A stretch of DNA of 64,000 nt from Nereocystis luetkeana (Eukaryota > Sar > Phaeophyceae > Laminariales > Laminariaceae), in NCBI GenBank assembly GCA_031213475.1, contig JARUPZ010000012.1, positions 8,948,727 through 9,012,726 of the forward strand. The letters are read 5' to 3'. Both the position numbers and the translations under genes were made by a program. Below the pieces are notes generated by a model. It saw nothing but the letters and a program-made list of their open reading frames with translations. It was not told where the DNA came from and made no database searches. Position 1 is the first letter of the stretch, and each line of letters begins with the position of its first letter. Below, piece after piece: positions 22,691 to 55,353 of the stretch.

Positions 22691-22764
22691 AGCGTATACC
22701 GCCAAATAAAAAATACCGGTCGACGTGGGTAAATCAATCTTTCGTTGGGGGTCAAGATCCCCTG

Positions 22765-22950
22765 TTAAACGTCAACCGTGACGAGACGGGTAGAGCAGAT
22801 AGAAAGGTCCGCGAGCGGGATGCACTGCGAGTACCACTGGTTGCGAACGACGCAAGAGGCTCCCGACCAGCACTCCGTCGGCCCGCTCCAGCCTTCACCG
22901 CCGCACTGCTCCCACGAGTCCTGAAGACCGTCCTCGGGAGCGGGCGAACA
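22765..22950 (-). CDS. LPMO gene exon 8: CBM1 domain 2 and stop
   Basis: Acceptor GTGGCAG|T. Opens with the last Cys of CBM1-1, then the linker [11 protein letters not shown], then [20 protein letters not shown] and QWYSQC. The last 18 codons are not CBM-like; one more short intron before the stop cannot be excluded. Confidence 0.86.
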
Positions 22951-25900
22951 CTGCCACAATATGAGAGAAGGGAGCAGATTAAGGGGGAGGCGGGTGATGC
23001 GCCGTTGGTAGAGCCGTCTCGAGTAAAGTAACGCAATAGACGTAGTGCGCTGTGCCGTAAATCGAGCAAGGTAGCACACACACTCCTGGGGTGGGCCTCC
23101 GAGTCCGGTTTTCTCCAGAACATGTCTTCCCATAAGAGGCATGCATCGCTTGGCGTTTTCGCTCGACATCTTGCGAAGTTTCGTGCGAGGGGGTTCGCTA
23201 TCCTGCGTGGCGTGTTTTTTTTCGGCATACGTATACTTGCTGCAGTCGTCAGCGGCGGGCATCTTAACAGATGACGGTTGAGCGCTGCCAACGGATGCGG
23301 TTGTCGCTTTGGCGATATGGGGGCGGTACTCCCCCGGTAATACGAGCAAGCACTGACTGCTGTGAACGGCTGGTATGAACAGTGCGTTGCCCCTGTTTTA
23401 TTGGACGGAGGACATAATGTTTTTTGATCGAAAAAAGCACGCTTGCTTTTTTGCATGAAAATACCTCGAGAAACAATTGTACATACATCTCTCTTTCTCT
23501 TGATAACTGCTATTGTACGCCATCTCTCTATGACTACTACTATTGCGCGGCGGTTTCGTGTTGGCCGAAACATATATTTTTACCCACGCGCCGCTAAAAT
23601 GCCGCCTTCCGTCACGTCACTCGTTGCCGCCGCGCCTTCGCCACGTTTCTTCCGACTAAAATGCGTGGCATCGTTAGCGAATCGTGGTGCTTGACAGGTA
23701 GGAATGCCACTTTTCAGGCCAAATTGTCACTGGAACGGACTATGAACACACTCCTAAAACAAACCGGGGGAAGACGGAGTGCTTTTGAGTGATGCGATTT
23801 GTTTTTGTAGTTTTGGCACGAAGATACCCCCAAGAGAAGCGCAAGACAACAAGACGTATTTTGTGTACTCGTACACATAACAATTGCCACGGCGTTATTG
23901 TAGGGGTGCGGCGGCTCATTATTTTCTGAGAGCTCCTCGCACGAGCTCAACGTCCGAAACCCGCCTTCCAAGAAGTTTGTTCGCGCACCCCGACCAAGGT
24001 TGCCAAGCGCAAGAGTCAAAAAGCACAACGCGGTAAACGTATTGAGCGACCGGATGCTGTTGACCTGAGGAGAGCTCAACCGGTCAGAAAATATCAAGCC
24101 TAAAAACCGTGGGATGAATTAAGAATATACCAAACTACCTACGAACAATGACGACAGTAGTACTAGTCGCTTCCCGCAGCGTGGGGAAAAAAACATCGGC
24201 AGCAGAAAAAAAGAAGCGAGAGGCAACACGCAACCCCACCTGGGAGTAGGTTTCGACGAGGTCTTCGCAGGCATACCCCTCGGTGCAGCACGTCGATCCA
24301 GACCAGTTTATCCCGCCACACTGCAGTTGGTTGTCGGTAAAGACGGAAAGCGGGGGGGGGCGGCAGGGGCAACGTTCAGGACAGAGACCATCGAAAGCGA
24401 GGCGGGAGCCAGAAATCACGGCGTCATGTAAATGGCACTGGGGTGTGTACAGGTGTTGCGTCTTGTGGACGGGTTAGGTGACGAACGTGTTGGGAGAATA
24501 CACAGTTTATGACCGGCCGGGGTCCTCAACGGAGGGTTGCTCTGACCAATGGTTGACACACACACACTGCCTGTGTACGGTCAGACGAACATAGCTACTC
24601 CTAACCATCCTAAGCCGAACAGAGCAACCCTGGAACCTGACCCTGACCCAACCATACCAAAATCTCGGATGATTATTAAGTGGAAAAGCTCTCCGTTTAG
24701 GAGCGCAGTCCCGTTTCGAGACGAGCTACATGGAATTTTCCTTTTACCTGGGGGATCTACACACTCCTTGACCGGTCTGTCCCCACGTCGGACCTGCCGT
24801 TCTAAAAGTGTTAGCGGGACCCTTTCACTTGGGGGTGCCTACCCACCCTCGTCGAAGCACCACATTCTTGTTTGTGTACCTAGGTCTTCTTCGGGAGACA
24901 TACGTACAAGGAATTCCTCAAGCGAATTAGCCTAGAGGAAAAAACAGGCGCATCTGCTAGGGTGGCATGCGTCACGTCTCCATCACGAGGAGTGCGGGGC
25001 CTAGACACACGCGTGGTTGGTGAAGCGCGCAACAGGCCTAAGCAGCGTTGAGTTGGAGGGGGGGTCACGATATTGATCTACTCGTACGCTCATCAAGTTT
25101 TCGGTTCGGACTGGGTACACATCTCCCAGGTTGAAAAAAGTAATTTGATTGGATTCCGAACCCCCCCCCCCCATAGGTGTGGGTGGGAGGTACGATTGGA
25201 ACCAGCGCTACGCATTGCCAGATGGCGAATATTATATCAGGTATAAAGGGCTTTGATATGAGCCATCGGTGGCTATGTGAACGACCGCATTTGCCGGTCA
25301 CCTCGCACATTGTTGGTTTTTAAAGCGATATACAGAACGAGATATTTAGTACTATATTTGAGGATACAGTATTAATAGTCGAATCTGTCGGGAGGGAGTT
25401 GTGCACGATACACTTTCGGGACAGAAAACATGACAAACAATAGTGGAAACTATGAGCGAACACACCGGACAAATGGCGCGTTCTACGATAGAGATAGCAC
25501 CTTTCCGCTAATATGTTTTCTGAATGACGGGGGCTCCTGAACCTTAATTCGTCGGAATGCCCGTCTAGTTCCGAAAAATGACATTTTTGTATACTTGGGC
25601 CATGGGATTTACTCATCGGGATGCAATTTGATTTTGGCTGAAGCCAGTTTTCAGGTCAGGTATGGAGCTCTTTACGTGAGGAGCCTCAGAAAAGTCAGGG
25701 TGAATTCTGTCGTAAAACGCCTCAAATCCTCGATGACAGGAAATACGCATCGACATCAAGACTGCCCGCATACTGCACTACACGCTGGCTAACAAATTGC
25801 TGTAAGCTATACCCGCACCCCCGACAAGATCACTCGTAGACCTCTCCGTTAAGAACCTCCCACAGAAATCTCCGATAAACACCTCTTGAGTATATCTTCA

Positions 25901-28900
25901 ACAGACACTTCCGAAAGAAAAAATCTCGTTTGGGCGGGAACACCATTACATTCCCCCCGTGTGCCAGTTTCGCATACGGGTTTCCATGGCGCACTTACTT
26001 GGCCGTACGCCCCAACCAGAACAGTGCAGCTTCCATTGCCCTCATCTTCCTCGGGCATGATAGGCGCAAACGTCGCCGCAGGCGCGACAGGTGCCGGCGT
26101 GGGAGTGGTTACTTCCCCTACAAAAAACGGTGGGTGATGCCAGCAGGGGCAGGGGGGGCGGCGGGGAGGGCGTTACTCATTTGCTGCATGCCTTGGTCAT
26201 TTGACCATTGACCACGTATCCCTTTCGAGGTGGAGTAGTGTACTCATGTCATGCATGGCCGTAGTCGTATGACCACAGGCCCTCGCAACCTTTCAATGCC
26301 TGGACGGAGCACGTTCGCTTGCACCCAAAGGCCGAAGCTTCGCCGAAGTGTTCCCGATTTTAGTCGCATAAAGGGTGGCATGCATCCTACTTGTTGGGCG
26401 CGGACTCGGCACCTCTTTGCGAGCTGGGCGGCAGGGGAGAGGGGTTACATCAACACTCGCTTCATGTGTTTGTACTATCAGGGATTCTCACAAAAAAGAG
26501 GGCGTTTTCATTTTTACCAGGAATTCTCAAAAAGAAGGCGTTTTTATTTCAGTTCTGACCAAGGACACGTACGGTAGGGGGAGGGTCACTCCTAGGTTCC
26601 GTGTTTTCAGCCGCTCATAGCCGAGTGACTACTACCCCCAGCACAACTATCCCCCCAACCTTTCGTGGTAATTATTATTATTATCAATTATTATTATTCT
26701 TCTCATTTTTTTTTTTTTGCCTTTTTTGGTTCCTTCGTGATATGCATGCACCGTTATGACATTTTGTTTTGTCACGCTTTCGCCAACGAACAGTGCCCAG
26801 CATGTTATCCAGTTCGAGTCCACGTTTTTTTAGTGAGGCACGACAGATCATGTCACCCAGAACGCGTGAACGCTGTGCTGCGATATTGAACGCGGTGTCA
26901 CTCTTCTAGGGAGGCGTTTTTCGGCTATTGTGAAGGACTCTTCTCACCGCACTGCATTGCCTCCGCCTCTGCGTTGCAGTCGTCAAGGATGATCGCCGTG
27001 TCGTCCCTATGTATTTGATAAAAAAAACCCCCGTCATGTTAGCGAGATCGAGCGAGTGAGCCACCCAGAACGTTAGATCTAATGCTGTCGGCAAAAATAG
27101 CCAATCGAACAACTGATATCATTGCGTTTGCTTTGCCAGACCCGACAATCAATGTGTGTTAACACGAGCTTCGACATTGATCACTCATCAAGGACTCACC
27201 ATGTCGAACTCCGACCTGACCTTTCTGTAAGAGCTATATTAAATAACTTCAATGCCTAGCCGACTACGTGGACTCAATATTAAATAATCGGCGACACCTC
27301 AGCCAACTCGCGTACATCCCTATTTTGATGTCATCATTTTTTTAGAGCCGATGAGCGCGACTATAAGTTTATTTTTCGCGACTACCCGACCGCTCTACAT
27401 ATCCTCCATGGCGTCGCAAAATAATCTGCAGCAAGCCACAACACGCAATACGCGCGATCGAAGCGAGCATATCATGCACAGCTTTCAAATGTGCACGTTT
27501 GGCTCGCTCACCTCGGCAGGACCGGAACGCACTCCAAGTTGCAGTTGCCGCGAAGGCTCCTGTGGCAAAACGAGATACAGAAAAACTAACGCATGTCGGA
27601 TATATCGTGATCCAATTTCCGATTGTGTCACATATCGGTCACATCTCATCCCAATATTTTACACATCGGATGTATCAGATCCCATTATTATTAGCTCATA
27701 CATATAGGACAGAATCAGACCCCACTAGTTCACAGATATCGGACATATCCAGTCCCATTATATCACATATCGGACATATCGGATCCTAGAATTTTCACGT
27801 ATCGGGCATATCAGATCCCATCAATTCACATATCGCACATAATCAGATCACATTGGTTCACATATCGGACATAATCAGATCCCATAATTCACATATCGCA
27901 CACACCAGATCACATTGGTTCACACATCGGACATAATCAGATCCCATCAATTCACACATCGCACACACCAGATCACATCGGTTCACACATCGGACATGAT
28001 CAGATCCCATAATTCACGATTGGTGATCATGTTGGACATTGTCAGATCCCACAACTTCACGATCTAGATCTTCGGAGCGGACATTTAAGATCCCTCGTGT
28101 CTTACGGTCTGAACGATCTGGTTCCGTCCTGGGTTTGCCGGGCATGGCCTGTGTCACACCTCACACGACTCTTGTTGCAGAGCATATGGCAACAACAGCG
28201 AAAGCAGGCTCCACCGCACAGGATCCACTGCTGTCGTAGATGGTCTTAATCGATAATCACCGCTCGTTGTAGCTCTCTGTCTACATGCTTCGAAGTATGT
28301 CTGACCCGTGTGTGTTTTGCTTTTCTGCCGGGCAGGTTCTGCTTCACGCGGCTCTCGCTTCTGAAAAAGAATATCGCAACAGGGAATCTTTAGGACCTCA
28401 TGCTTGTAGATGATCTACTTCGAAGTACATGAACTACTACTGCTGCAGTGGATCGTCGTCCGTCCGATGCGTGGAAACATTGGAGACATTGCAGATGTTG
28501 TGGATGCCGTCCGGAAAGGGAGCCGGTTAATTGGGGGGGGGGGGGGGGGGGGGGGGGCAAAACCCAGGTTGTATTATTTACAAGATTACACGAGGGCGTC
28601 CCAGAAAAAGAGAAAACGACAACACCGCACATACACCCAGAGCTCGGATTGGAAAAACCAACGGGTGCGTTATGATCACAGCACGAAATAAGATAACACA
28701 CCCGGTATTTGTTTAGGGTATTACTTCTTCATTTGGTTGTATAGTACTCCACTCCGCCCTGCGGCGCGTCGATTGTTTTTTTCGTATATCCTACAGGTAG
28801 GTGCCTATTTCTATGCCGGGTTTTGCTTGTATTGTATGGACAATGCTTGGTAACACGATTTACTATTAATATATGTGCTACTTGTTGCTGTGATATCGCG

Positions 28901-31900
28901 GTTTCCATCCGACAACGTGTATTTAGAGCATAATCAACGCCATTGTTGCTCGTATAAACAGCCACTACACGGAAATAGAAGAAAAACACACAGGAAACTG
29001 TTAATAACCGTTGTTGCTGGTAAGTATCGAAAGCAAGCCTATCGGCAGGTACTGTAGCTAGGGCTTGCTTGTGTGCATATGGAAACGACTATTATTCACA
29101 ATCTGCCTTTCCAGAATCAACCACACAAGAAAACAGAAAATATAAAACACGACACAAAAAAACGCGTGTATTGCTCCGCATACCACCAAGCAAACTGTTG
29201 ACGTTCTCACGTTTGCCGCCGATGCTCAACGCTCCTCCCTGCCTTGTCCTACTCAGAGCAGCTGTGGCCAGCTCATCTCTGCTAGTGAACGAGTCCGCCC
29301 TCGCAACCTTACGCTGCTGCCTTACACTCCTGTTGCGTGCGACTCACTCTGCGACCAGCTTGTCCATGCCTGTGCGCAAGCCCATCATTACACCTAGATT
29401 TACGCCGCTGCTCTACACTCCTGCTCTGCTCGACTCACATTGTGACCAGCTTGTCCATGCCAGTAAGCAAGTCATCGGGCAACCAGGTGATGTCATTGTT
29501 TCGGAGGAAGCTGTACGGGCGGAGTGGTGAGCCGGAGGGACGGGGGGGGGGTGGTCGGCGAAGCGATAACTAATGGTGCCAGTCGACATGCGCCCTTGGG
29601 AATTGCTCTAAAATTTACTAGGATAAGCCACCTTGATCATGTCATCGTTGGTGCTGTCGCGAAATCAATATGCGCGGGATTTTACCTACAGCTGGTGCCC
29701 AGATTGGGTAGGCGTCGCTTGGCAGCGCCCTTGCAAAACACGCCTGACATTTGGGTGAGCTAGACACCCAGGGTACCGTTTCCGGTTTTGCTTTCAGCGG
29801 TCACCATGAATGGCGGTCGAGATGCAGCATATCGTGCGGGATGGAGAGCCTTCAACCCCGCACAAGGGGGACGGTATCGCATAACTTAAACGGCCAGGCA
29901 CCCACGAGGCAGTTACTCGTCATAGCTCGAAGACGATGGTTGACGCCGACACTCTCTTTCGAGCTTCGGCGCAAGATAGGGAGGGGCTTCACAGCTCCTG
30001 CCGCAAGGGAGGAGCTACGGTTCGGGTGCCGCCTGCATTTTTTTCTGAGTCTCTTCTTCACCTGAGCTTCGTATCCTAGTGAAACATAAAAAATGGATGT
30101 TGACCCTTTTAGCGCCGCAGCCCCATATGTGGGGACAAAGCACTCAAATTATAAGTAGTTTGCCCCCCAAAACGGGACTGGGGCCCTAAAAGGGTTGAGA
30201 AAAAATGCACACTATATCGACTAACACAATGGTTGATAGCTTTAGTGCTACCAACCATTGAACCGTCTACCAGGAGCGTGAGTGCCTAGCAGCAGTACGG
30301 GGTGCGAGCATGTTGCTCCAGTGCCGGACGACTCCCTGTCACTGCTGTAACTCGGGACACCAATTTGTATCGTCTCCCGATCACGCAGCAGGTATTATTA
30401 TAGCCATCTCTGTAACCGCCACGTTTTTTTCTTTTTTTCTTATCATCAAATTTCCCCTCTCAAGTCTCAAGAGGGTTACAGACTATCCGACCAACCAATG
30501 CCATGGCCTCGTAAAACTGTCACGAAAAACATCGATCTGCAAAGTATATATCACGATCACAAATATCCCGGCCCTAAAGTGCGTCCCCTTCTGGGCGAAT
30601 GCTACAGTACGGTTGATAGTGGCGCATCAACAAACCTCTGAGAATCCTCGCTGGAGGAACTAAAAATCCCAGTGACAATATGAAACAAGATCGCTTCAAG
30701 GGTAAGCGCGCATTTAACTCCCCCGACGAGTAAGGCCAGATGCCTTACAGTACACCTGCAACAAAAACGATCGGAAGACCGAACGATTCTACTAATACCA
30801 GGTAGTTTTTTATGCATCATGTCCTTGAGGAGGGTCGGTCGCCAGCCAGAAAAGTTTGTCTTGCAGGGCAGCAATAATGCTATACCTATTACGTATCGTA
30901 GCGGGTGTCCCTACCATAAAACGCCTCCAAAGACTGTATAGGTCTTATCGCACGTAAAACGTTTCGTGGGGGTAATAATGCGAGCGGATGACCCTGTGCG
31001 GCCATACATTTTCTTGATCTTCTCCAGTTGTCCAGTGGCCTCGAAGCACTCCCGAAGGTCACCGACATCGCTTTCTGTCAAGTCGCAGTCGGTGAGGTCA
31101 CTGTTGCGCGACGGCATCACGGGAGACACAGCAACCAACAATGCAGCAGAGGGGGCGTAGCCGTGAAGAAGGGCCCCCACAATTGTTTTTTACTGTTTCT
31201 GGTCTACGGTAAGCAGGGGGCGCGGTCAGAGGCAAGGGGCTCAGACAGCGGAGATCGACATACTGCACCCTTTTTAGTACACGACAAGAGACTGATGGGA
31301 AATACTGCAACGTTCGCCGATGCGGGGGGGGGAAAGCGTGTACGTATTGGATCAAGACATGTACTGCATGCAGCGTTGAAGAAATAGGCAAAACGCGTCA
31401 TCCACCACAGCTACCAGCTATGCACGCAAGCGATGCACTGTGATACATGTGTTGTTCATCATGCCCTCCTGATTCGATGCGTTTGCTGGGCTAGTCTGCT
31501 GCCTTTCGCCGTCCGGATTCTTTTTTCTTCAGATTCCAGTCAAACAATACTTATTACCTGGCCCACTCGTACTTTACTCGTACACGCCCGGGGATTCAAT
31601 TCGTGTGCACAATGCGCTCGACGTCGAACACCTTTTGCAACTATCCATCCAGCGACCGGAGGTACAGCAGTATACATACACACTGCAGTACGGTTACGAT
31701 AGCAAGTGCCTTCTGGCAAAATCTTCCGTCCTTCGATTTCGATCGAAATGCCGCACACCGCAAGCAGATCATGTACATATCATACAGATCATGGATCCAT
31801 CTATCTATCTATCTACAGTAGGTCACATATTCCTTCGCCTACCGTATTGAGATATTGAGGATATGCAGGGTCCCCATAGTGCAGATTCAACCTGAGGAAA

Positions 31901-43900: not shown

Positions 43901-46900
43901 CCCCCTCCGCCTCGAGTCCTTAACGCTACGAGTGGTTCACCTGCTGTGATGGCGATGTCAGCGCAGTTCCAGAATTCCTCAGGGTAGGGGAAACCCTCGC
44001 CGCACGGAGGCGGGTCGAGGTGAATCCAGTCGGACACCAGCGGAGCGCACCCTCCCGGAACGGAGTTGGGGCTGAACTCTTCGTACCCCGGGTGCCGGCA
44101 CGAGTTCCCGGTGTCTGTGGCGTTTGATTGTGTGCGAAACACACGTGTTCACGGCAACGGTATAGAAGGGACGGTCAGTTTTCTTAAATCGCTTTTTAGG
44201 AGACACGCTTGTGTGTTCGTATCCCCTTTAGAAAGGGGGATTTTCCCAATGCCTCGAGTGGGGGGGGGGGGGGTGCTTCTTCAACCCTTTTTTACTTATA
44301 GAGACGTCAGTTTCTTAACCCTTTTAGGAACAACGAACTTGGAATTAGAGTGGTTGTTCCCCAAATCGGGACTGCACTACTAAGTATAGGAGTTCATCCA
44401 CTGCTGAGAGGGGGTGCGTCCGCTCTTTCACCCTTTTTAGAAGGGACGCCGTTTTTTTTGTCTCCTTTAGATGGGACGGCAGGGATAATACCTGCCACTC
44501 TGTACCGGGATACAACAACCGTCGTCATAGAAATAGTTAATCCACAATGCCCTTACCTTTCGGGAAGGAGTGACGACATCATTTTCATGAAGAGCTCCAC
44601 ACTTAACATCAGTACGTCACCTAACTACCTTCTTGGGACAAAAAAAAATAGGAGAGAGAGAGAGCTAGACACACAACATCATGTGCTCTCTTACGACAGC
44701 AGTATGGGTGTAACTATCAAGCACAAACACGCCTACTTTCAGAGCTAATTTCGTCCGATTTCCTCTTCGACAACGCGGAGTGCCTGTTTCAACCGATCCC
44801 ACCCTCACACACAGAGCACGGGAATCTCTAGAGTACCAATTACTTGCTTCAGACTTTGTGGAACATGGCATCGATCAGACCTTGAAATCAACTTGAAACA
44901 AAACGTAGGAAAATATGGTGTCCCTCTTGTGGGGAAAAAAGGTGAAATGCAACATCGGGTGCCGCAGCTGAGGGATCCCGCGCCGTCAGCAAGAGTTGAC
45001 CGGCCCCAAAAACGGCAACTCTTTTCTTGCATCATAAGCACGCCCCCGTTCGAAACAAAACTCACAGTAAATCATCTGCACGACGCAGCGCGTGCAGCTC
45101 AGCCCTTCGGGCAGCACGAAGCGACCGGTTACCAGGTAGCCGGCGGTTGCGCCGTCCGTCTTCGTCTGGTCGGTCTCGGTGGCGCGGCAAGGCGGGTCCA
45201 GGAAGTAGCGACCCGGGTGCCTCGGGTCTATCGGGCTGGCGCCCTCGTCGTCCGCCGCGCGGTTGAGCGGGTGTTTGTTAAAGCATTCCTGGGTGACGAT
45301 GCCATCTTCTCCGTCTTCTAGGTCGGCGGTATCGCAGATGAAGTACTCCAGGTGGCCCTGTTTTTGTTTTGAGTTTTATCAAGATGATGGTGTTTGGGGG
45401 GGGGGTATTCCTCGTGGTTTTCTTCTTCCGGGGGGTGGTTACGAGGGATCAACGTTCAAGCTTATTCATGCTGCACTGGCACATTGGTCGGGTGGCAGAC
45501 GCAATAGTTGTAAAAGTCGGTATGGCGGTAGATTGGTTTGTTTTGGGTCACTGGTGTATGTACGTGTGCTTGACGTTGCTAGGCAAATGCGAATTAAGGG
45601 GGCTTGCCAGACCACTTCAAGGGTGGACGAGACTACCCTCCCGCGCTCGCATTAGCTTGGGCGTGAAACGTTCATTGCGGATTGCGGGGGCATTGAACAT
45701 TATAACAACCCCTACAAGCTGTCGTCCGCCTCTCAATTCGGTGCGCCCAATGGTGTGCTACACTGTTCAATACCTCCACATGTATTTTGTGTACACCGAC
45801 GTGGTGCAAGAGGGGCTCCCGCCACCTGTGGTGCTGCGCTTTCAAAACCAAACGTGTTTTCGCGTAGTACATGTTGCGGTAATGTAACCTCGAACTGCTC
45901 GTAACAACCTGCGTCATGAGTAACTGTCGGCTCCAGTTTAGCGCCCCCCTCCATTGCCGCAGCATGGATTTATACAGCAATAAATGCTTTATACACGAGT
46001 AAAAACGTTGGAACGTCGCGGAGTCACCCCACGGTAGGGGGTCGCACTTTTTGGCCCAAAGGTTTCTGACCGATTGAGTTCCCGAAGAAGTGAGGAACAG
46101 GAGTTAGGGCATGAAAAACTTTACTCGCATATTCGTTATAGGACTAGCTCATACAAGTCAAGTGCCGATCCGGTGGCGCGAACAATTTTCTTCCGAGTAT
46201 TGTATCGAGAGTCATATTGAGCCCCTAATGTGAGGGGCTAACTTCTGTTGCACCCCTACCGTGAGATGGCTATCCGATACAGGGCAAGTAACTTATTGTA
46301 ACTGTGGGTATACCAGGTTGATACTACTCCTGTACCTCCTACTCAAAAACAGGAATCACAACAAATAGTTGACGGAAGCATAAAAAACAAAGAGGCCATG
46401 GGATTGTTTCATGACCGTGCGGTCTTCTACATTCTTTGGTGTTTTGAGTCTACTCCCGTGGAAGCTTCCATAGCAGTGGACGTCATGTTGTCCTTGAAAG
46501 TTGATGGTAAGCTTCCATGGTAGTTAGTTGGCGAAAGCTTCCACGGTGGTAGTCGGCGAACGCTTTCATGGAAGCAACTTCAGTTTCACAGAAGTAGTTT
46601 GGTGGACTCTGAAAGAACGGTCCGGTCTAGTCTACTCACCCAGTGGAAGGTAGATATGACGACTTTCATCTCGATGACCGCCCCCTCTTCGTACGTGTCC
46701 AGCACCGGGTAAATGCTGCTCTCCCTCCCGAATGTGTTGGTACCCTCCGCTGCCGTCTGCAGCGCGTTTGTGCCATCACAGAGCGGCATGCCATCACGGA
46801 CAGGGTGTAAATCACGGCATGCCACATCACGTTCTGCCGCAACAATAATCCGTCGCGGTCTACTGTCGCAACAGCGGTGCGTAGTCTCAGCGGCATGCCA

Positions 46901-49900
46901 TATCTATACTTGACGGCACGTCAAACGCAACATATCGGCACGGATCACAGCACATGCACGCCATCACGGAGCGGCATGTCACCAGAGCAAGCTCCTCGCC
47001 GCATTGCCAAACTTTCACAGCATACCGCCACGGCCTACTGTCATCACAGCAGTGCGAAATTACAGCGGCATGGTATTGACAATATCTCGTTACAGGACAT
47101 TGTCACAGCATGCTATCCGTTCATGTTCTCCACCCCCCCCAACTAGTCCTGTCACAGAGGCATGCCCTGACATCATGTCATCACGGCCAGCCACAACGGC
47201 ATGCCATCACGACCTGTCATTTGTTCGATTACAAAGGATGCACCCCTGAGCAACGAGGGGATGAACCACCGCGACACTCCGTAAGCGAGGAGTGGTCAGT
47301 CGTAGCTTTATTCTCTATGTACGGGCAGGATCATAGCATTGTCAGCATGTCATGCCATTTCGGTCCGTCATCACAGCATGCCATCACCGCGTACATCGCC
47401 ACAGCGTGTCATCACGGCATGTCACCGCAGCAGAAGAGCCGAAGGCAACGCGAGCAAATTACCGGCAAGCACATAGTTCCGCCTAGGTCGCCACATAATC
47501 CCCGGACGTACGTCCACAACGGACGGGGTAGTATGAAAAGCTGCATCATTGAAGGTTATAATCGGTAAGCTAACTCCTGTATTAATACATCAGAAATGGG
47601 CTACTGCGGTGCTATGCATTGCCAAATGCAGCTTTTTTCTTGTTACCCACCTGTGTTCTGGGTCATTGCTGTAGTCTATGGGTCTACCAGGTATGTACGA
47701 GTAACATGAAACCGGCATCGTTAACGGCTATAGCCGGCACTCTACAATACTTTTGAGCTACGGGCTAGTGCTGAACATACAATTACCATCCCCGCCAATT
47801 ATATGGCTCCCCAGTTGTCACCCACCTGTTCTGGGTCGCCACAAAACCCCGGGGATGGTACAAATCAATCCCCGGATTGACGGCTATGATATGTAACGGA
47901 TGGGCAACATGATAAGCTGGTGGTTGAAAGTTATAACCGAGGCAAGCTAACCGAACCCCAGCTACGGGTTACTATACAGCACAGCAACCACCACTCACTG
48001 CCAAAACACGGGCCTTCCCATTTGTCCTCCCACCTGTTCTGGATCGCCACAGATTCCGTGGCGGACCGAGATCTCTTGCGGCTCGAGGTAGTTGCCGTTG
48101 CTGGCGAGCTCTCCGAGGTCGTAAGCAGCCCTAAGGGGCCAATTGCCCCCCCCGTACTTTTCCAGGACATCCGCCGGCGTGTTTGCTTCCCCGCGCGCGC
48201 GCACCGCCATGGGTCCCCTCGACTGGTAGCAGTGGGGGCAGTAGTTGATGTCCGGGAAGTCGCTGTAGTCGAGAATCAAGGGGCGTGCGAAAAAATTGCA
48301 ATTGATGCGCATATATATATATATGAGTGTATCTACTATTAATACATGTTTCATCAGTTAAACAGGTACCTATATTTTTTCGCGGGGGGGGGGGGGGGGG
48401 GGGGGGGTGAGTGGGTGGGGGCGCGATGATGCTCGGAGACACTGCTGTAGCAAGACGAGGCAGGCAGGCTTTGGTGGCGAATTCGGAGGCGTATCCCACC
48501 GGCGGGATCCAAGCGACTGCTTCTCATGTAAATACACTTCGTGCACCACCAAGGACAACGGACAGACAGAGCGGGATTGCAGGTGGACCGCTGCTGCCCG
48601 GGAGAGCTTAGAGAGGGGTGTCGGGAATGGAGGAGGCCATGGTGGAACGGGAAGGGGGGATAAGAGAGGGGCTTTCTTTGCCATAGTACCCCTAAGGGCT
48701 TGGGTCGAAAATATTAAACGATTCACGCGCAGAATTAATACATGTACACGTGCCTGTAACTTCTGTAAGGCTTTCATACCCTTACGGAACCAATCCACAT
48801 ACCCTACAGAATACACACTTTCATCCGTCATTTATCCGTCGATGTATATATTCTCGTATGGCTGCTTTCTTCTTTCTTTTTTTTGCTTGCGGGAGAATGC
48901 GAGCTTATACCAAACTACAGAACTGTAGTAGTACCTGAAGGCCAAGTTAAAACCCCAAGGAAGGAAGTGCCATCGAAATGAAGCAAGTACCATGGGGCAC
49001 AACGAAATATGCGCGTGACCGTCGCTCGTCCTCTAGGTCGACGAGCGTGTACCTCCCATCCAGGTGAGAACTACGCTGAGCGGTACAAACGAACCGTAAA
49101 AACGCATACCAGGGTACCTGATAATAAACATACTCCGTTGCAAGCTCTTGAGAGTACACACTATTACGGGGGACCCTAGTTAACAGGACCTATGGCGTAC
49201 ATAAAAAACTATATATTCAAGCATTTTTACTAACAATATTTGCTCCTGTTAACTATGGCCCCCCGTAATAGTGTTGGATATCGTACCGAAACTTTCGATC
49301 TTTTATCTATCGTTCGATAAAAAAAAACAACTTATCGAACCGAAAAAACCGAAAAAACTTAGGGTATTTCGATATTAGTCTCGATAATTCGATGAACGAT
49401 AACGATACGATAAAACGATAAAAGGCCGAACGCCCCTCGCTGGGCGATAGGGGACACGGCAACAAACCAGCATTATAACCTGGTATACACGTATAATATC
49501 AGGCCATGGGTGTAACACCATCTGATTACTTGGTTGGAGTATTCAATACCAGGTGTGTGCATGTACCTGGTACGCAATAGGGACACGAGCCCCAAGAAAA
49601 GGAAGGCTAAGATTGATAGGAAAATAAGTAGTTCGGGAATCTTTTTACTGGAATTGGTGCATAACGCGCCCCCCTGCTCGGGTAAGAAATGAGTACCCCC
49701 CCCCCCCCCCCCCCCCCCTGCTCGGTTAAGAAAAAAATAGGAAATCAGGGAGTCTTTTTTCTGGAATTAGTGGACAACGCGCCCCTTTTCTCGAGTAGGA
49801 AATTCAGCCTGGGCCAGGTTCCTTGCTTCATATTATGTCTCCAGCAGCCTCTACATGGTACGTTGATTCTGGTGAAGAAACTACTATTTTTAATCCTTAT

Positions 49901-50710: not shown

Positions 50711-50743
<33 letters not shown>

Positions 50744-51994
50744 CATCCCATTCATTATCTTCGCACATCTTCTTGTCTCTCTCCTTCCAACTCGTAACTC
50801 AGATCCGGGGTCACATAGCAGGCTCTTCTCCCCCCTTCCCGCTACGGTACGTGCCTTCATTTTTTATCGCGAGAAGATTTCAGCCTTTTCTTCCCTCGTC
50901 GACTCGCATCGAATCGTGCCTACCCACGCTGCAAGGCGCTCTCAACAATTGAATCCCTTTTTTTTATTTTTGCAAATAAAGTCAAAGTCCGACCCTCCTG
51001 GGGCTCGAACCCAGGACTCAAACAAGTAGAATTCGAGGTTAACCACTTGAACCACCGGGGCGACCGGCATGGCAAGTAACAAAGTCTGTTTTAAACGCCT
51101 ACCGAACCCTGAAAAGGCGTGTATCGGGATCAGAAACTAAACGTATTTTGTTCTACTTCGCATGGATAAAGGGCTTGAAAAAAAAAGCCTGCGGCGAATT
51201 CAAAGGGGCTCAGGAAAAATGTCATTTAGACCAAAATGTTGCGCCAGCGCAACAGCTATTTAAATCCCTGGTCTGATTGGTCCTTTCTGAAGTCGTTGAA
51301 TTATGATTTCCCTTCTATACGTGGATGGTGTGATTGATATAAGCACTGCTGTACTTACACGGTCATTTGGCAAATGAAATGGCGATAAATGTGGGCAAGG
51401 TATCCGGTGCTACATACTGGGTGTATTATTATTTCTCTTGCCATCCGACCATGGTATAGGGTTATCGAAGTTATTTCGGCCTTCTCGTACCGAAACCTTT
51501 CTGGTTTCGATATCCAACCCTAGCACACACCATTGACAGCTTCAAATCCCCTTCAGCTTTTTTATTAAATTGTTACGAACACGTCGTCAGTTGCGATGTA
51601 GGTCCGATTGAGTTGCAGGGAATATTCTTTGAAAGTTGTTTGATATTTTCCCGATATCTGATAAATATGTGACTGTTGGTTGCTCTAGTTCCGATATTAT
51701 TTATTGCCTGTCGCTATCGACCACTCACTCGTACTAAGATGTTTTTTTTAGCCCTTGTAGTATGTACTCTGTGCAGTCCCGTTTTTGGAGACAAACAAGT
51801 CAAATTCACACGGTAGTTTATCCCCAAAACGGGACTGACCGCCGTTTAACCCTTTTAGAACCGCAGTCCCGATTTGGGGACAAACTACTTGAAATTTGAA
51901 TGGATTGTCCCCAAAATGAGACTGCAGTTCTAAAAGGGTGAAAAACGGTTGACGTGGTTTTCCTTCCATAAGCCAGAGCAATTTCGTCACGGCC

Positions 51995-52035
<41 letters not shown>

Positions 52036-54951
52036 CATCCCATTCATTATCTTCGCACATCTTCTTCTCTCTCTCCTTCCAACTCGTAACTCAGATCCGG
52101 GGTCACATAGCAGGCTCTTCTCCCCCCTTCCCGCTACGGTACGTGCCTTCATTTTTATCGCGAGAAGATTTCAGCATTTTTTTCTTCCCTCGTCGACTCG
52201 CATTGAACTGTGCCTACCCACGCTGCAAGGCGCTCTCAACAATTGAATCCTTTTTATTTTTATTTTTGCAAATAAAGTCAAAGTCCGACCCACCTGTGGG
52301 GCTCGAACCCAGGACTCAAACAAGTAGAATTCGAGGTTAACCACTTGAACCACCGGGATGTATGATATCATGGTGTTCGTATCTTTGTGGAGTAGTTTTG
52401 TGACCACATATTATTAATATGAATACCAGATATTGAAGGATCGGCACGGACACTGGTTGTTCTGGATGTCGACCGGTAGAACGAACGGTTCAAAGTGAAC
52501 ACATACCATCGCCGTGCCGGTGGTAGGGCATCTTATTCCATAGATATTCATGTACCTGGTACTTCCAAGAACAACAGCCGTACCATGTGTGTTCTTCACA
52601 TTAAACCGTTCTTTCTACCCGTCGACATCCAGAACAACCAGTCAGTGTCCGCCGTGCCGATTCTTCAATCCTAGAAGAGATACAAGTTCTGTGGTCACAA
52701 AGCTACGCCACAGATTTAGTAAATAGGACCTACGGTACACACAAAAACCTGTATATTTCCCATCTCTTACGAACAATATTATTTCCTACTGGTATTTCCT
52801 ATTATAGTCCCCCGTCATGATGGGGTGTGTCGACCTTTCGGCTTTCCGCGAACAACACCACGCACGATTCGTCGGAAGGTGTGCAGAAAAAAGCTCTCGC
52901 GTCGGGCCTCCAGGGTCAACCCTTTGTAATTTCCTTCGGTGCGTTGCAGCTATTGCAGCTGCAAATCAATACAGTTAGTACTGCTGCTGCTGTGGAAGTT
53001 TACCGATCGGTAGATACGATGGAAGGATATGGACAAGATCGCCTTGATCTCCCACGTACGTATGGAACCATAGGGGGCGCACGAGGTGGTGGTGGCAGGT
53101 AGGGTCGGCAATCAGACTTCCTTCTAGCGACACCCCTCCATACGAGCCCTCCCCTGTTGACGAACCCAGCTGTTTCAGAAAAGGCGGCACTTTTTACTGT
53201 TGGGGATCGCACGGAGGTACCTCCTACGTACAGGGAATCAAATTCATCACGACGAACGTGCGTACGTATTGATACTAGCTGCTCTGGGTGTGGGTGTGTG
53301 TCATACACATTAAACCATTATTTCTATCCGAAAGCGACGATGCCGCAGACGTACATACGCGATATTTGTTTGTATGAAACACGCGCTGTCTCGAGCGAGT
53401 GGGTACGACTTTGGGCAAGAGGCGATATGTCCATGGGAAACACCGATACAAAAACACGGGCTATTAACCCCTTTAGAACCGCAGTCCCGTTTCGGGGGCA
53501 CACAACTCAAATTTCAAGTAGTTTGTCCCCAAAACGGGGGACGGCGGTTTTAGATTGGCTAATAATGGCATATCTCTCGGTGTGGGTCCCGAGGCGAGGC
53601 GTGCTCTTCTATACCTGGTACGCCACGAGGGGAGGGCCCTTCTACTGTACTGTAGCACCGCAGCCTCGTTTTTTGAGGACGGACGAGTGAGAATTTGAGT
53701 GCTTTCCCCCACACAAACGGTGCTGCGGTCCTGAAAGGGTCAAGGCCCTATTATACATAGGGATTCGACTATTATGATTAATAATACTGCTGCTGCTGTG
53801 TAGTGGTAGCGTTTTCCTCTCTCGAGGGCGACCTTTTTTGGCCCTGTTTCATGATACCATGTGCAGCAGGTAGCTGCGCTTGTGACTGTGCTGTGGAGTG
53901 TACAGCAGCAACCCTACATTACAGCACGCTCGACGGTGGTGTACACGTCTAGCTCGCAATCCTACTTGTAGGAGAAGGAACCGGTACAGTAGCTGTACGG
54001 ACACTTTCGTGGGGTAGAATTGAAATCACGTCCGAGATCACAATCATCATGCTGTATACCCATTCGATGCGAGTCGACAAGGGAAGAAAAGGCTGAAATC
54101 TTCTCGCGATAAAAATGAAGGCACGTGCCGTAGCGGGAAGGGGGGAGAAGAGCCTGCTATGTGACCCCGGATCTGAGTTACGAGTTGGAAGGAGAGAGAG
54201 AAGAAGATGTGCGAAGATAATGAATGGGATGAGAAAAGAAAAGAAAAAAAAAACACCCGTTCCTTGAATCAGTTATTTTCGCCAAGCAAGCGCAGATCCC
54301 AATCGATCCTATTTTTGACACCTTACTAGCGGGTCTACCACACACAGGCAAGTGATACTTCCCTCAAACGAGTACTCTCAACTCCTTTTGGAACCGCAGT
54401 CCCGTTTTGGGGACACACTACTTATAATTAGAGTGCTTTGTCCCCACATATGGGAGTGCGGTGCTAAAGGGATTAATGAGAGTTACTGGGTTTGTCCCGA
54501 CAATGAGAGCGCGGTGCTAAAAGGTACAACTGCAACCAGTGTTTTGAGGACAAAATACTTGGAACCAGTATATAGGGCCGTTCGGATTTTTGCCAACAAC
54601 AGTCCAACGAAAAATAGGCAGTTTTCGGACGCGAAAATCAACAGCGAGCGAGCGCGGTGAGTGTGCTTTTCGCGCTCGTCAAGCTTGCGCGTTCGGCACT
54701 TGTTACACTGCTGTAGAGCAGTAGTAGTCACAACCCCAAGCAGGTCGCAGCAGCCGCACCACCATAGTGAAAAAGATCGAAGTAACTTACGATGTTTGGA
54801 AGGCCGAAGTGTAGTAAAAGTTGCGGCTGATAGGCTCCATGAGGTACACGTGGCCGTCCACCTCCCTCGGCAGAACGTTGAACACCAAGCATCCGGCAAT
54901 GATGCCGATGAGTGCCGAAACCCAAGACGAAGCAGCATGCGGCCGAGCCAT
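22765..54951 (-). CDS. Secreted LPMO (AA15/chitin-binding-4-like) with two CBM1 domains
   Basis: Eight exons (54951-54791, 48262-48034, 46756-46640, 45357-45066, 44114-43941, 26117-25999, 24320-24240, 22950-22765) total 1359 nt, giving 452 residues and a stop. Every junction is GT-AG and phases match (2,0,0,1,1,0,0). Residues 1-33 are a signal peptide. His34 starts the mature protein in [11 protein letters not shown], typical of copper LPMOs, whose histidine brace uses the N-terminal His. His168 in [13 protein letters not shown] is the likely second brace ligand, and Phe314 or Trp315 in EEFWNCADI the axial position. CPHC, CGDP, CVVQMIYYTGNSC and the many cysteines fit the AA15/CBM_33-like fold. 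Residues 326-352 form a Pro/Thr/Ala linker. CBM1 domains lie at about 362-392 (YGQCGG..YSQC) and 404-434 (EQCGG..YSQC). The expected role is extracellular oxidative cleavage of cellulose or chitin; substrate unknown. No polyadenylation signal was seen. Confidence 0.88.
24240..24320 (-). CDS. LPMO gene exon 7: CBM1 domain 1 core
   Basis: Acceptor CTGCAG|T after a long pyrimidine tract, donor CCCAG|GTGGGG, 27 codons, phase 0 at both ends. Encodes [12 protein letters not shown] through YSQ; the final Cys of this CBM1 is the first codon of exon 8. Confidence 0.86.
24690..24815. mobile_element. Decayed family A MITE in LPMO intron 6
   Basis: GCAGTCCCGTTTCGAGAC arm and a CTGTCCCCACG..GTTCTAAAAGTGTTA arm, with a loop expanded by unrelated sequence. 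Old copy. Confidence 0.5.
25507..25725 (+). repeat. Interspersed repeat family D, copy 2
   Basis: Best preserved with 57676-57888. They share TTCGTCGGAATGCC, TTCCGAAAAA, GTATACTTGGG-CATGGGATT, AGCCAGTTTTC and GTATGGAGCTCTT. In LPMO intron 6. Confidence 0.6.
25999..26117 (-). CDS. LPMO gene exon 6: linker
   Basis: Acceptor TTTTTTGTAG|G with a good T-run, donor CCAA|GTAAGT, phase 1 in and 0 out. Encodes [17 protein letters not shown], an acidic patch and [14 protein letters not shown] completes the first CBM1 (YGQ|CGG). Confidence 0.82.
26231..26400 (+). repeat. Interspersed repeat family C, partial
   Basis: Matches the right part of 36686-37195 in inverted orientation. Both start with a frame reading MHGRSRM and MPGRS. 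About 70 per cent identical by eye. Confidence 0.5.
27590..28060. repeat. Satellite array, about 29-bp monomer
   Basis: About 16 diverged units of the type TCACATATCGGACATATCAG plus ATCCCAT. In the right half two variants alternate (GGACATAATCAGATCCC and GCACACACCAGATCAC), forming a dimeric higher-order unit of about 57 bp. Lies in LPMO intron 5. Confidence 0.85.
29310..29476. repeat. Tandem duplication, about 89-bp unit
   Basis: Two copies sharing TACACTCCTG, GACTCAC and GACCAGCTTGTCCATGCC, about 80 per cent identical. The plus-strand frame runs through both. Confidence 0.6.
29740..29960 (-). repeat. Interspersed repeat family C, copy 3
   Basis: Same orientation as 21719-22045, with CCCAGGGTACCGTTT, GAGAGCCTT-ACCCCGCACAAG and CACCCACGAGGCAG. 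The open frame of the family is interrupted here. Confidence 0.5.
30101..30198. mobile_element. TTAA-type foldback MITE (family A)
   Basis: TTGACCCTTTTAG at the left and CTAAAAGGGTTGA at the right, arms intact with about 10 mismatches; flanks drifted from TTAA to TTGA on both sides. Confidence 0.8.
31797..31815. repeat. (ATCT)n microsatellite
   Basis: Five tandem ATCT units. Confidence 0.8.
33987..34050. repeat. Perfect 22-bp inverted repeat
   Basis: CGTGGAGGTTTTTATTGTTG (33987) and its exact reverse complement ending at 34050, arms of 22 bp, loop about 20 bp. No terminal motif ties it to families A or B. Confidence 0.85.
34187..34325 (-). mobile_element. tRNA-derived SINE 1, tail fragment
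   Basis: Plus strand shows the reverse complement of the 3' half: T-run, CTCATCCCATT, CAACTCGTAACTCAG, GGGGTCACATAGCAGG and GGTACGTGCCTTCATTTTT. The tRNA head is missing. Confidence 0.8.
34372..34495. mobile_element. TA-type foldback MITE (family B), diverged
   Basis: Arms GGGGACCGTAAATAAAATAGG and ATTTGGTTCTATTTACTTTGG. Loop holds TACCAGGTA and TACCTGGTA facing each other 10 bp apart (34420-34447). Confidence 0.6.
34600..35160. repeat. Cluster of ACTTCCATGGAAGT-type palindromes
   Basis: Exact or near copies at 34611, 34740, 34755, 34795, 35008, 35105, 35118 and 35135. Related copies lie at 33013, 33930 and 46465-46590. Scattered, not in tandem. Confidence 0.65.
35655..35905 (-). repeat. 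Interspersed repeat family E, copy 1
   Basis: Inverted relative to 46016-46270, about 70 per cent identical. Landmarks are TCACCCCACGGTAGGGG, GGCCAAAGGTTTCTGACC and TTTACTCG. Class unknown. Confidence 0.6.
36686..37195 (-). repeat. Interspersed repeat family C, longest copy
   Basis: Joins the segment shared with 21719-22045 and 29740-29960 to the segment shared with 26231-26400, so it defines the family's extent. It ends in CGAGTAC next to a poly-C tract, as does 21719-22045. Confidence 0.55.
38184..38293. mobile_element. TA-type foldback MITE (family B)
   Basis: TATTACGGGGGACGATAG and CTATGGTCCCCCGTAATA ends, inner TTAATAGGACC and GGTCCTATTAA. Lacks the ACCWGGT block in the loop. Confidence 0.9.
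38421..38520. mobile_element. TA-type MITE (family B) split by a SINE
   Basis: Left arm TATTCCGGGGGAGCATAG and loop are present. The right arm breaks off at CCTATTTACTAT where the SINE T-tail begins. CGTAATAG after the SINE at about 38956 may be its outer right end. Confidence 0.6.
38535..38957 (-). mobile_element. tRNA-derived SINE 1, copy interrupted by a MITE
   Basis: On the minus strand it has a tRNA-like head (GGTGGTTCAAGTGGTTAA as A box region, GGTTCGAGCCCC as B box), an unrelated body and a poly-A tail (poly-T on plus). A family A MITE sits inside the tRNA head at TTAA. Confidence 0.88.
38837..38933. mobile_element. TTAA-type foldback MITE (family A), defining copy
   Basis: 89 bp (38841-38929) from CCCTTTTAG to TTAAAAGGG with about 40-bp arms, flanked by TTAA on both sides. 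The same SINE position at 51039-51042 reads GAGG-TTAA-CCACTTG without the element, proving insertion at TTAA with duplication. TTAA targets and CCC ends are typical of piggyBac-superfamily elements, so it is probably mobilised by a piggyBac-like transposase elsewhere. Confidence 0.95.
41064..41550 (+). repeat. Interspersed repeat R1, long copy
   Basis: Head TTAAACCGTTCTTTCTA, CGATTCTTCAATCCTAGAAG and GTGGTCACAAAGCTACGCC; middle CATGTCATCATACTAGATAC; then an A-rich tail with TGTCGTGCCCCCCCCCGCAGG. Other copies lie at 52427, 52587, 55657, 56600 and 58660. Unclassified; the A-rich tail suggests retroposition. Confidence 0.6.
41562..41690 (-). repeat. Diverged duplicate of the LINE 1 3' segment
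   Basis: About 70 per cent identical to 41870-41990 in the same orientation (GTAGTATGGTC, CCTTGCTACCC, CTGCCATCTCC, GCTTTCGTC-type blocks). Probably a second, older LINE 1 3' end. Confidence 0.5.
41870..43665 (-). mobile_element. LINE 1, degenerate RT gene, 5'-truncated
   Basis: Minus-strand non-LTR reverse transcriptase. From 43620 it reads [19 protein letters not shown] and NNYRGISLL, then [34 protein letters not shown] and [16 protein letters not shown]. Next come the catalytic [11 protein letters not shown], the post-polymerase [12 protein letters not shown], and [20 protein letters not shown] and PRPGGQ. The frame shifts near 43040 and 42720, and an in-frame stop follows PRPGGQCKT near 42310, so it is dead. 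No endonuclease domain is visible, as expected after 5' truncation. It lies in LPMO intron 5, 276 bp beyond exon 5 and in the gene's orientation. Confidence 0.85.
43941..44114 (-). CDS. LPMO gene exon 5
   Basis: Acceptor CCACAG|A, donor GCAG|GTGAAC. The first two bases complete Tyr267, giving IYYTGNSC across the junction. Encodes the end of the catalytic domain, including [14 protein letters not shown] with the putative axial aromatic residue. Confidence 0.88.
44315..44386. mobile_element. Truncated family A MITE in LPMO intron 4
   Basis: TTAACCCTTTTAGGA start; most of the left arm is missing; right arm TTGTTCCCCAAATCGGGACTG remains. Confidence 0.6.
45066..45357 (-). CDS. LPMO gene exon 4
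   Basis: Acceptor AACAG|G, donor ACT|GTGAGT, 97 codons plus 1 nt. Starts GHLEYFICD, then [31 protein letters not shown] and [16 protein letters not shown]. The 9-mer TACCTGGTA lies in its coding sequence (45130-45138, Tyr-Leu-Val). Confidence 0.88.
46016..46270 (+). repeat. Interspersed repeat family E, copy 2
   Basis: Partner of 35655-35905, inverted. In LPMO intron 3. Confidence 0.6.
46640..46756 (-). CDS. LPMO gene exon 3
   Basis: Acceptor CTGCAG|A, donor TGG|GTGAGT, 39 codons in phase 0 at both ends. Encodes the beta-strand region [17 protein letters not shown] carrying the likely second copper-ligand His168. Confidence 0.86.
46780..47430. repeat. GCATGCCATCACGG-type dispersed short repeats
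   Basis: At least fifteen imperfect copies of GGCATG(C/T)CATCAC(A/G)G(C/G) separated by variable spacers, all in LPMO intron 2. Cluster rather than regular tandem array. Confidence 0.65.
47530..48070. repeat. Tandem triplication spanning the LPMO exon 2/intron 2 boundary
   Basis: Three diverged units of about 175-190 bp ending near 47665, 47850 and 48060. Each contains GGTTATAA-like and GCTACGGG-like blocks followed by CCCACCTG(TG)TTCTGG-TCGCCA. In the rightmost unit that last block is the real end of exon 2 with its donor. The other two keep a GTGGGT donor-like word. Confidence 0.75.
48034..48262 (-). CDS. LPMO gene exon 2
   Basis: Acceptor GACTACAG|C, donor CAG|GTGGGA. Residues 54-130; contains [13 protein letters not shown], a Gly/Trp loop ([14 protein letters not shown]) and the ICGDPEQ end typical of AA15-like domains. 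The end of this exon is repeated in degenerate form inside intron 2. Confidence 0.87.
49162..49270. mobile_element. TA-type foldback MITE (family B)
   Basis: TATTACGGGGGACCCTAG and CTATGGCCCCCCGTAATA ends; inner TTAACAGGACC and CTCCTGTTAA. Lacks the ACCWGGT block. Confidence 0.9.
50713..51066 (-). mobile_element. tRNA-derived SINE 1, full-length
   Basis: About 350 bp including a T-run of about 30 on plus (poly-A tail). tRNA-like head at the right end with B box GGTTCGAGCCCC. Provides the empty TTAA site (51039-51042) for the MITE in the copy at 38535. Confidence 0.9.
51770..51845. mobile_element. Family A MITE, truncated
   Basis: GTGCAGTCCCGTTTTTGGAGAC arm and inverted ATCCCCAAAACGGGACTG arm; outer ends lost. 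Abuts the next copy. Confidence 0.7.
51846..51942. mobile_element. TTAA-type foldback MITE (family A)
   Basis: TTAA-CCCTTTTAG left, CTAAAAGGG-TGAA right, full arms. Two copies side by side may mark a preferred target. Confidence 0.9.
51996..52357 (-). mobile_element. tRNA-derived SINE 1, full-length
   Basis: T-run of about 36 on plus, then the SINE 1 body and tRNA-like head ending CACCGGG. Very similar to 50713-51066. Confidence 0.9.
52427..52530 (-). repeat. R1 head fragment, inverted
   Basis: ATTGAAGGATCGGCACGGACACTGG reads as the reverse complement of the R1 head. Faces the fragment at 52587. Confidence 0.6.
52587..52712 (+). repeat. R1 head fragment
   Basis: TTAAACCGTTCTTTCTACCC to GCTACGCCACAGA, cut off by a family B MITE remnant. 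Confidence 0.65.
52713..52815. mobile_element. TA-type MITE (family B), left end missing
   Basis: AGTAAATAGGACC inner left arm and TTCCTATTATAGTCCCCCGTCAT right end. Loop lacks ACCWGGT. Confidence 0.6.
53464..53562. mobile_element. TTAA-type foldback MITE (family A)
   Basis: TTAACCCCTTTAGAACCGC start with full left arm; right end decayed (GGTTTTAGATTGG). Confidence 0.75.
53650..53745. mobile_element. Old family A MITE
   Basis: CACCGCAGCCTCGTTTTTTGAGG and GCTGCGGTCCTGAAAGGGTCAA; arms much diverged. Confidence 0.5.
54061..54253 (+). mobile_element. SINE 1, 5'-truncated, opposite orientation
   Basis: Body from CATTCGATGCGAGTCGAC to the A-rich tail. The tRNA head is absent, as expected of 5' truncation during retroposition. 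Confidence 0.85.
54379..54476. mobile_element. TTAA-type foldback MITE (family A)
   Basis: CTCCTTTTGGAACCGCAGTC start and CGGTGCTAAAGGGATTAA end. A second, partial remnant follows (54486-54560). Confidence 0.75.
54791..54951 (-). CDS. LPMO gene exon 1: signal peptide and N-terminal His
   Basis: ATG at 54951; 53 codons plus 2 nt, then GTAAGT. Residues 10-28 ([19 protein letters not shown]) form the hydrophobic core. Cleavage is expected after VDG33, exposing His34. Too short to stand out as an ORF because TAA follows at the donor. Confidence 0.85.
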
Positions 54952-55353
54952 CGTCTCGCCACTCAAAGGTACTTATTTACTTATGCTGTTGTTGGTACGG
55001 AAAGGCTGATGCGCCCGGGAAGGGTTGATCGAGGGGCGCAGCGTGCGTCTTCTGCTTGGTGCCGATTGGTAGCGGTGTAGTAATAATAGATATACCCGCT
55101 CTGGTTGTTGATTCTTTTGCTTGCTGTATGGCAAAAGGGCCAGAAGGGAGTGAACTGAAGTGGGGAGTGCGCTCCAACTATATACTCGCGAGTCACAATA
55201 CAGCTGCCGCTGTATTTGCCTGTTCATTCTTATCGGAGAGCGTTTTTTCCATAATTTCCAAAGTTTGGAAATAATTGGAGATATATGTATCAATTTATGG
55301 AGGCGTTCTGTCACTATTCGTGAAATTACCCAGAACCAAAAATATCAAGTTCG

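What the first reader, a model, noticed from the sequence alone, without database searches (positions are those of the whole stretch)
22765..54951. A 32-kb gene for a secreted LPMO carrying two fungal-type CBM1 domains in an alga-like genome
Eight short exons found independently by protein-like signal fit together with all seven phases matching, for example ACATC|CGAC, TTTACT|ACACC, GCAG|GGGAA and CCCAG|TGT. The product has signal peptide, exposed N-terminal His, second brace His, conserved Cys and two CBM1 modules. AA15-like LPMOs and CBM1 are known separately in diverse eukaryotes. This particular LPMO-linker-CBM1-CBM1 order, in a genome that also shows plastid-targeting signals, is unusual and may act in remodelling of the alga's own cellulose wall.
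Basis: partly seen in the sequence, partly recalled or inferred. Interest (0 to 1): 0.85.

Follow-up and report, generated by a model that had tools for sequence, protein, structure and literature searches.

The report
Secreted AA15 LPMO with two CBM1s
This is a convincing long, intron-filled gene for a secreted copper enzyme of the AA15 type that carries two small cellulose-grip modules; such fusions are already known in water moulds, so it is mainly a new member of a known kind, of interest because it may sit in an algal genome.

Summary
Eight minus-strand exons between 54951 and 22765 join through seven GT-AG introns into an intact 452-codon frame. The product has a hydrophobic leader, then His34; LPMO_10 matches residues 34-320 over the full profile (E 5.8e-15) and CBM_1 matches twice. 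The only LPMO among the PDB hits is the AA15 enzyme 5msz; its second brace His91 aligns with His168 and axial Tyr184 with Phe314. The weakest joint is the 17.8-kb intron between LPMO and CBM1 exons: phases match and a six-frame Pfam scan finds only a LINE reverse transcriptase there, but no transcript was available.

AA15-CBM1 fusions are in print for Saprolegniales and AA15 for Phaeophyceae (passages). Less usual: two CBM1s, the first with an incomplete cellulose face and an 81-nt core exon that could be skipped in frame, and a possible algal host; a 2012 survey found no CBM1 in Ectocarpus or two diatoms. The host is not identified. Best reading: a wall-anchored, copper-dependent oxidase acting on the organism's own cellulose. 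The axial Phe leaves chitin open; defence or feeding is also possible.

The parts
54791..54951 (-). Exon 1: start codon, leader (residues 1-33), His34 (first brace His) and start of the LPMO domain
   Evidence: LPMO_10 profile position 1 falls on residue 34; hydrophobic stretch around residues 9-27
48034..48262 (-). Exon 2: LPMO core with YCPHC and GICGDP motifs
   Evidence: no Pfam hit alone
46640..46756 (-). Exon 3: LPMO core, ends at TFHW with His168 (second brace His)
   Evidence: no Pfam hit alone
45066..45357 (-). Exon 4: LPMO core (GHLEYFIC ... [16 protein letters not shown])
   Evidence: weak LPMO_10 hit alone, E 0.043
43941..44114 (-). Exon 5: end of the LPMO domain with [11 protein letters not shown]; Phe314 at the axial position
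26118..43940 (-). Intron 5, 17823 bases, with a LINE-type reverse transcriptase at 43046-43666 and other repeats
25999..26117 (-). Exon 6: Thr/Pro/Ala-rich linker and first residues of CBM1-1 (to YGQ)
24240..24320 (-). Exon 7: core of CBM1-1 (CGG...YSQ), 81 bases, phase 0 on both sides
22765..22950 (-). Exon 8: last Cys of CBM1-1, short spacer, whole CBM1-2, tail and stop codon

Best explanation
The gene makes a secreted, copper-dependent polysaccharide monooxygenase of the AA15 type. After the leader is removed, His34 becomes the N-terminus and with His168 forms the copper-holding histidine brace, with Phe314 at the axial site. A Thr/Pro-rich linker ties it to two CBM1 modules. CBM1-2, with a full aromatic face (Trp404, Trp430, Tyr431), should hold the enzyme on crystalline cellulose; CBM1-1, which lacks one platform aromatic, should hold less tightly or differently. 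The enzyme would then cut or loosen the microfibrils of the organism's own cellulose wall by oxidation, in growth or division. Shown: an open spliced frame, domain matches, aligned residues. Inferred: splicing, secretion, copper binding, cellulose as substrate, own wall as site.
For: Intact eight-exon frame; exon/intron GC contrast and GC3; LPMO_10 from residue 34 over the whole profile and CBM_1 twice; 5msz (TdAA15A) the only LPMO among hits, E 1.4e-7 for the LPMO domain; CBM1 face residues; no rival domain in intron 5 by Pfam on six frames, apart from RVT_1. Same domain order in Saprolegniales (PMC8393829, passages); [quoted passage not shown]
Against: Axial Phe is that of chitin-active TdAA15B and AaAA15A, while axial Tyr is called reminiscent of cellulose-active AA9s (PMC5823890; PMC8393829). 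Thr166 stands where TdAA15A has Ala89. The phmmer match to 5msz is in three pieces with E-values of 0.012, 0.38 and 1300, so the axial assignment rests on a short motif and its order. The E5-E6 joint spans 17.8 kb, starts at a weak donor (GTGAAC) and has no transcript evidence. No fold of the LPMO was made. Host not identified.
Confidence: 0.55

Rival explanations
1. Same protein, but the main substrate is chitin or another polysaccharide; the CBM1s only place it near cellulose, or bind chitin-like surfaces.
For: Phe314 at the axial site, as in TdAA15B and AaAA15A; AaAA15A made C1-oxidised products from chitin (the cellulose result was cut off in the passage seen).
Against: Two cellulose-type CBM1s, one with a complete aromatic face; AaAA15A comes from a species in which only 1 of 31 AA15s carries CBM1.
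Confidence: 0.2
2. Defence or feeding enzyme: the protein is secreted against the cellulose walls of parasites (such as oomycetes) or of food, not for the organism's own wall.
For: AA15 LPMOs are put forward as virulence factors in an oomycete (PMC8393829, title and passages); nothing in the sequence says which wall is the target.
Against: No direct data for it here; the Pfam scans made, which covered only part of the window, showed no defence or digestive neighbour.
Confidence: 0.15
3. Two genes: an LPMO that ends in the read-through of exon 5 (stop near 43798), and a separate CBM1 gene made of exons 6-8 with an upstream exon not found.
For: The intron between them is 17.8 kb and holds transposable elements; the donor GTGAAC is weak and the exon 5 frame stays open for 48 further codons.
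Against: Donor and acceptor phases match, exon 6 begins as a Thr/Pro linker as expected after an LPMO, AA15-CBM1 is a known order, and the read-through, which contains a run of seven Gly, has no Pfam hit.
Confidence: 0.1

Closest known systems
AA15 LPMO TdAA15A of Thermobia domestica (PDB 5msz)
   Same: Second brace His, GxCGD motif, LPxGxxCTxCVxQ motif and C-terminal EExxNCADIAI line up
   Different: Phe314 instead of Tyr184, Thr166 instead of Ala89, LPMO domain of 289 residues against a 201-residue chain, and two CBM1s; T. domestica sequences are catalytic domain only
AA15-CBM1 proteins of Saprolegniales (Aphanomyces, Saprolegnia), PMC8393829
   Same: AA15 domain with C-terminal CBM1, in a stramenopile lineage; axial Phe in AaAA15A (passages)
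   Different: Two CBM1s here and a 32-kb gene with long introns; the oomycete sequences themselves, and whether any has two CBM1s, were not seen
CBM1 of Trichoderma reesei Cel7A (PDB 1cbh)
   Same: Cys pattern; 20 of 36 positions identical for CBM1-2 and 18 of 36 for CBM1-1
   Different: CBM1-1 has Thr388 for Tyr31 and Val386 for Asn29 and two extra Cys (355, 375); its best solved match, 1azj, has Ala at position 31
CBM1 proteins of algae (Porphyra purpurea, Ostreococcus lucimarinus), PMC3160888
   Same: Several CBM1s in one algal protein (passages)
   Different: No LPMO domain is mentioned for them in the passage; not stramenopiles (Porphyra red by that paper's own reference, Ostreococcus green by recall)

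Membership tests
AA15 LPMO | Match to the LPMO_10 profile above its cut-off | tested here: met
   56.9 bits against 23, positions 1-183 of 183; the profile is not specific to AA15
AA15 LPMO | N-terminal His after leader cleavage | tested here: met
   Residue 34 is His and is profile position 1; hydrophobic leader. Cleavage site judged by eye, no dedicated predictor run
AA15 LPMO | Second brace His | tested here: met
   His168 aligns with His91 of 5msz
AA15 LPMO | Aromatic axial residue (Tyr or Phe) | tested here: met
   Phe314 by the EExxNCADIAI motif; this piece alone has E 1300, so it rests on motif and order
AA15 LPMO | Closer to AA15 than to AA10, AA9 or AA17 | tested here: inconclusive
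   5msz is the only LPMO among PDB hits up to E 10; no family-specific profiles or tree were available
AA15 LPMO | Beta-sandwich fold with the two His within copper distance | not tested
AA15 LPMO | Copper-dependent oxidative cleavage | not testable with these tools
   Needs purified protein
CBM1 | Match to the CBM_1 profile above its cut-off | tested here: met
   E7 alone 32.7 bits, E8 alone 48.8 bits, cut-off 20.6
CBM1 (second copy) | Three-aromatic cellulose-binding face | tested here: met
   Trp404, Trp430, Tyr431 by alignment with Cel7A positions 5, 31, 32; that these form the face is recalled
CBM1 (first copy) | Three-aromatic cellulose-binding face | tested here: not met
   Tyr362, Thr388, Tyr389; one of three lost
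CBM1 | Solved-structure-like fold | tested here: inconclusive
   Single-sequence model of exon 8 has mean pLDDT 47.6; no fold search made on it

The most novel reading that the evidence does not exclude
A photosynthetic stramenopile, most likely a brown alga, kept or gained a CBM1-armed LPMO and uses it to loosen its own cellulose, with a skippable CBM1 exon (E7) to switch between one and two grips, so that wall oxidation is part of normal algal growth.
Probability: 0.25. Interest if true: 0.65.

Novelty: new member of a known kind. Interest (0 to 1): 0.42.

Why it matters
If the host is a brown alga, this would be a CBM1 protein in a lineage where a 2012 survey of one species (Ectocarpus siliculosus), and of two diatoms, found none (PMC3532174, passages), and a concrete candidate for oxidative remodelling of cellulose in algal walls. 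The main text of a 2024 account of brown-algal wall genes, PMC11468063, has no occurrence of AA15, LPMO or CBM1 (term search; its supplements were not read). It also gives a clean, testable gene model across a 17.8-kb intron.

Tried and rejected
Host identification: no genome is held for the window; no tRNA found (bacterial settings); no Rfam match at gathering score; one repeat pattern has no exact match in viral contigs. The host stays unknown.

Relatives of the LPMO domain: scans of viral contigs (1 stretch matched a pattern, 0 confirmed) and genome contigs (4 stretches, 0 confirmed) gave none. These hold viral, bacterial and archaeal contigs and a single protein finds close relatives only, so this says little.

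A DNA pattern for the CBM1 start was not informative: 11 matches against 8.83 expected, and 26 shuffles had at least as many.

A rival gene inside intron 5: Pfam on three frames of each strand of 26118-43940 gave only RVT_1 at E up to 0.1. Flanks were scanned in part only: minus strand 55001-63990 and 1-8800, plus strand 14100-22760, and ten chosen ORFs. Introns 1-4, 6 and 7 were not scanned by Pfam.

A coding-score scan lists 8 of 8 exons among segments over 12 bits, but it was trained on this same CDS and is circular; retroelements and other frames score as high, so it was not used as proof.

Single exons also gave sub-cut-off hits without meaning (SPEG_u2 for E5, Toxin_7 and Fimbrillin_C for E8). 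Structure of exon 8 alone: poor model, not used. NCBIfam gives only a hit far under its cut-off (16.3 against 75 bits). The presequence-like ORF has no Pfam hit and only E 1.7 to FCP17 in the PDB.

Viral origin, bacterial origin or a pseudogene were considered and set aside: the frame is intact, the introns look spliceosomal, and no viral relative was found in the one scan. Purifying selection could not be tested.

Full report
Observation. A script rebuilt the model from the quoted junctions: minus strand, 54951 to 22765, eight exons of 161, 229, 117, 292, 174, 119, 81 and 186 bases, seven introns of 6528, 1277, 1282, 951, 17823, 1678 and 1289 bases, all GT-AG, 452 codons and a stop. Every exon is richer in GC than every intron (0.565-0.649 against 0.464-0.522) and GC3 is 0.764.

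More than chance. The joined protein matches LPMO_10 from residue 34 to 320 over the complete profile (E 5.8e-15) and CBM_1 twice (E 3.5e-18 for the protein). Exons 1, 2, 3 and 5 alone give no LPMO hit and exon 4 only E 0.043, so the strong LPMO score depends on the joins, which is evidence for those joins. Exons 7 and 8 hit CBM_1 alone at 6.7e-8 and 6.4e-13. The joint of exon 5 to exon 6 has no such support: it rests on matching phase, on the Thr/Pro-rich linker at the start of exon 6, on the known AA15-CBM1 order, and on the absence of any Pfam domain in intron 5 apart from a LINE reverse transcriptase. Against it: its donor is GTGAAC, one of three of seven that depart from GTRAGT, and the exon 5 frame stays open for 48 codons into the intron. 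Several exons are short enough to be open in other frames as well, so openness alone proves little.

What it is. Among PDB chains the LPMO domain finds 5msz, the AA15 enzyme of Thermobia, at E 1.4e-7, and no other LPMO up to E 10. The match comes in three ordered pieces with E-values of 0.012, 0.38 and 1300. By this alignment His168 meets His91, Thr166 meets Ala89 and Phe314 meets the axial Tyr184; the roles of these three residues are from passages of PMC5823890. His34 is profile position 1 of LPMO_10. I call it AA15-like with fair confidence; no family-level profiles or trees were available to exclude AA10 or AA17.

CBM1s. CBM1-2 keeps all three face aromatics (Trp404, Trp430, Tyr431) and Asn428 and Gln433. 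CBM1-1 has Tyr362 and Tyr389 but Thr388 and Val386 at the positions of Tyr31 and Asn29. Its best solved match is 1azj, whose printed sequence has Ala at position 31; that such a change weakens cellulose binding is recalled, not tested. Exon 7 encodes the core of CBM1-1, is 81 bases long and has phase 0 on both sides, so skipping it keeps the frame; whether it is skipped is unknown. The mature protein has 23 cysteines, an odd number (positions), with Cys443 in the tail the likely unpaired one (inference).

How it probably works. Leader removed, copper held by His34 and His168, linker and CBM1-2 tying the oxidase to cellulose, cuts made in the wall. Domain order, residues and a leader-like stretch are shown by sequence; secretion, copper, substrate and site are inferred. 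The axial Phe is a real point against plain cellulose activity: PMC5823890 (passages) has axial Phe in the chitin-specific TdAA15B, and PMC8393829 (passages) found chitin products for an oomycete AA15 with axial Phe. I put the whole reading at 0.55, and the gene model with its AA15-CBM1-CBM1 order at about 0.85.

What is known. PMC8393829 (passages): over half of the AA15s of three Saprolegniales carry CBM1, and 1 of 31 in A. astaci. PMC5823890 (passages): AA15 in Phaeophyceae and other algae, and AA15-CBM1 fusions, without saying in the passages which species carry them. PMC3160888 (passages): CBM1 proteins in Porphyra and Ostreococcus, which that paper labels a brown alga and a diatom although its own reference calls Porphyra red; Ostreococcus as a green alga is recalled. 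PMC3532174 (passages): no CBM1 in Ectocarpus siliculosus, two diatoms, Arabidopsis and rice. PMC11468063: no occurrence of AA15, LPMO or CBM1 in the main text (term search). PMC10154629 (12 of 17 places shown): CBM1 discussed for AA9, CBM14 for AA15. PMC8615602 (12 of 27 places shown): C-terminal regions of AA15s. In the ten paper searches I saw no report of an AA15 with two CBM1s or of CBM1 in a brown alga. These cover one open-access library, several lists were capped, most entries were seen as listings only, and asked for 3 of 5 terms so that its 15 listed papers (of 607) hold no CBM1 at all; the absence is weak.

Host. Long introns with transposable elements do not fit compact oomycete genomes (recalled), and the ORF at 6558-7013 contains what looks like a bipartite plastid presequence with a GADA-FVTPSAF motif (meaning of the motif recalled; weak PDB resemblance to FCP17, E 1.7). 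A brown alga is my guess, not a result.

Verdict.

Noticed in passing
window 38510-38842, 50713-51044, 52005-52342, part at 34169-34320, inverted at 54083-54253: A dispersed repeat of about 330 bases whose end holds, on the minus strand, a GGTTCGAGCCC box like a tRNA B box; looks like a tRNA-derived SINE (SINE reading inferred).
   Followed up: partly
window 38837-38933, 51846-51942, 53464-53560, 54379-54475, inverted 30100-30200: A 97-base palindromic repeat; its reference copy starts and ends with TTAA, like a small inverted-repeat element.
   Followed up: no
window 43046-43666 (-): LINE-type reverse transcriptase (RVT_1, E 1e-23) inside intron 5.
   Followed up: partly
window 8825-14078 (-) and about 60000-63800 (-): Two Copia-type retroelements: the first with gag, Pol_BBD, integrase and RVT_2 matches, the second with RVT_2 and Pol_BBD in one frame and a sub-cut-off integrase match in another.
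   Followed up: partly
window 6558-7013 (-): ORF holding a plastid-presequence-like stretch (MKIALALVAFMFLGADAFVTPSAF); no Pfam hit, downstream exons not found.
   Followed up: partly
window 15426-15788 (+): Weak RING-finger-like end (E 0.028, under cut-off) of an ORF.
   Followed up: no
window 22521-22668: 82-base tandem repeat about 100 bases past the stop codon of the LPMO gene.
   Followed up: no
window 27700-28017: Tandem array of about 32/63-base units inside intron 5.
   Followed up: no
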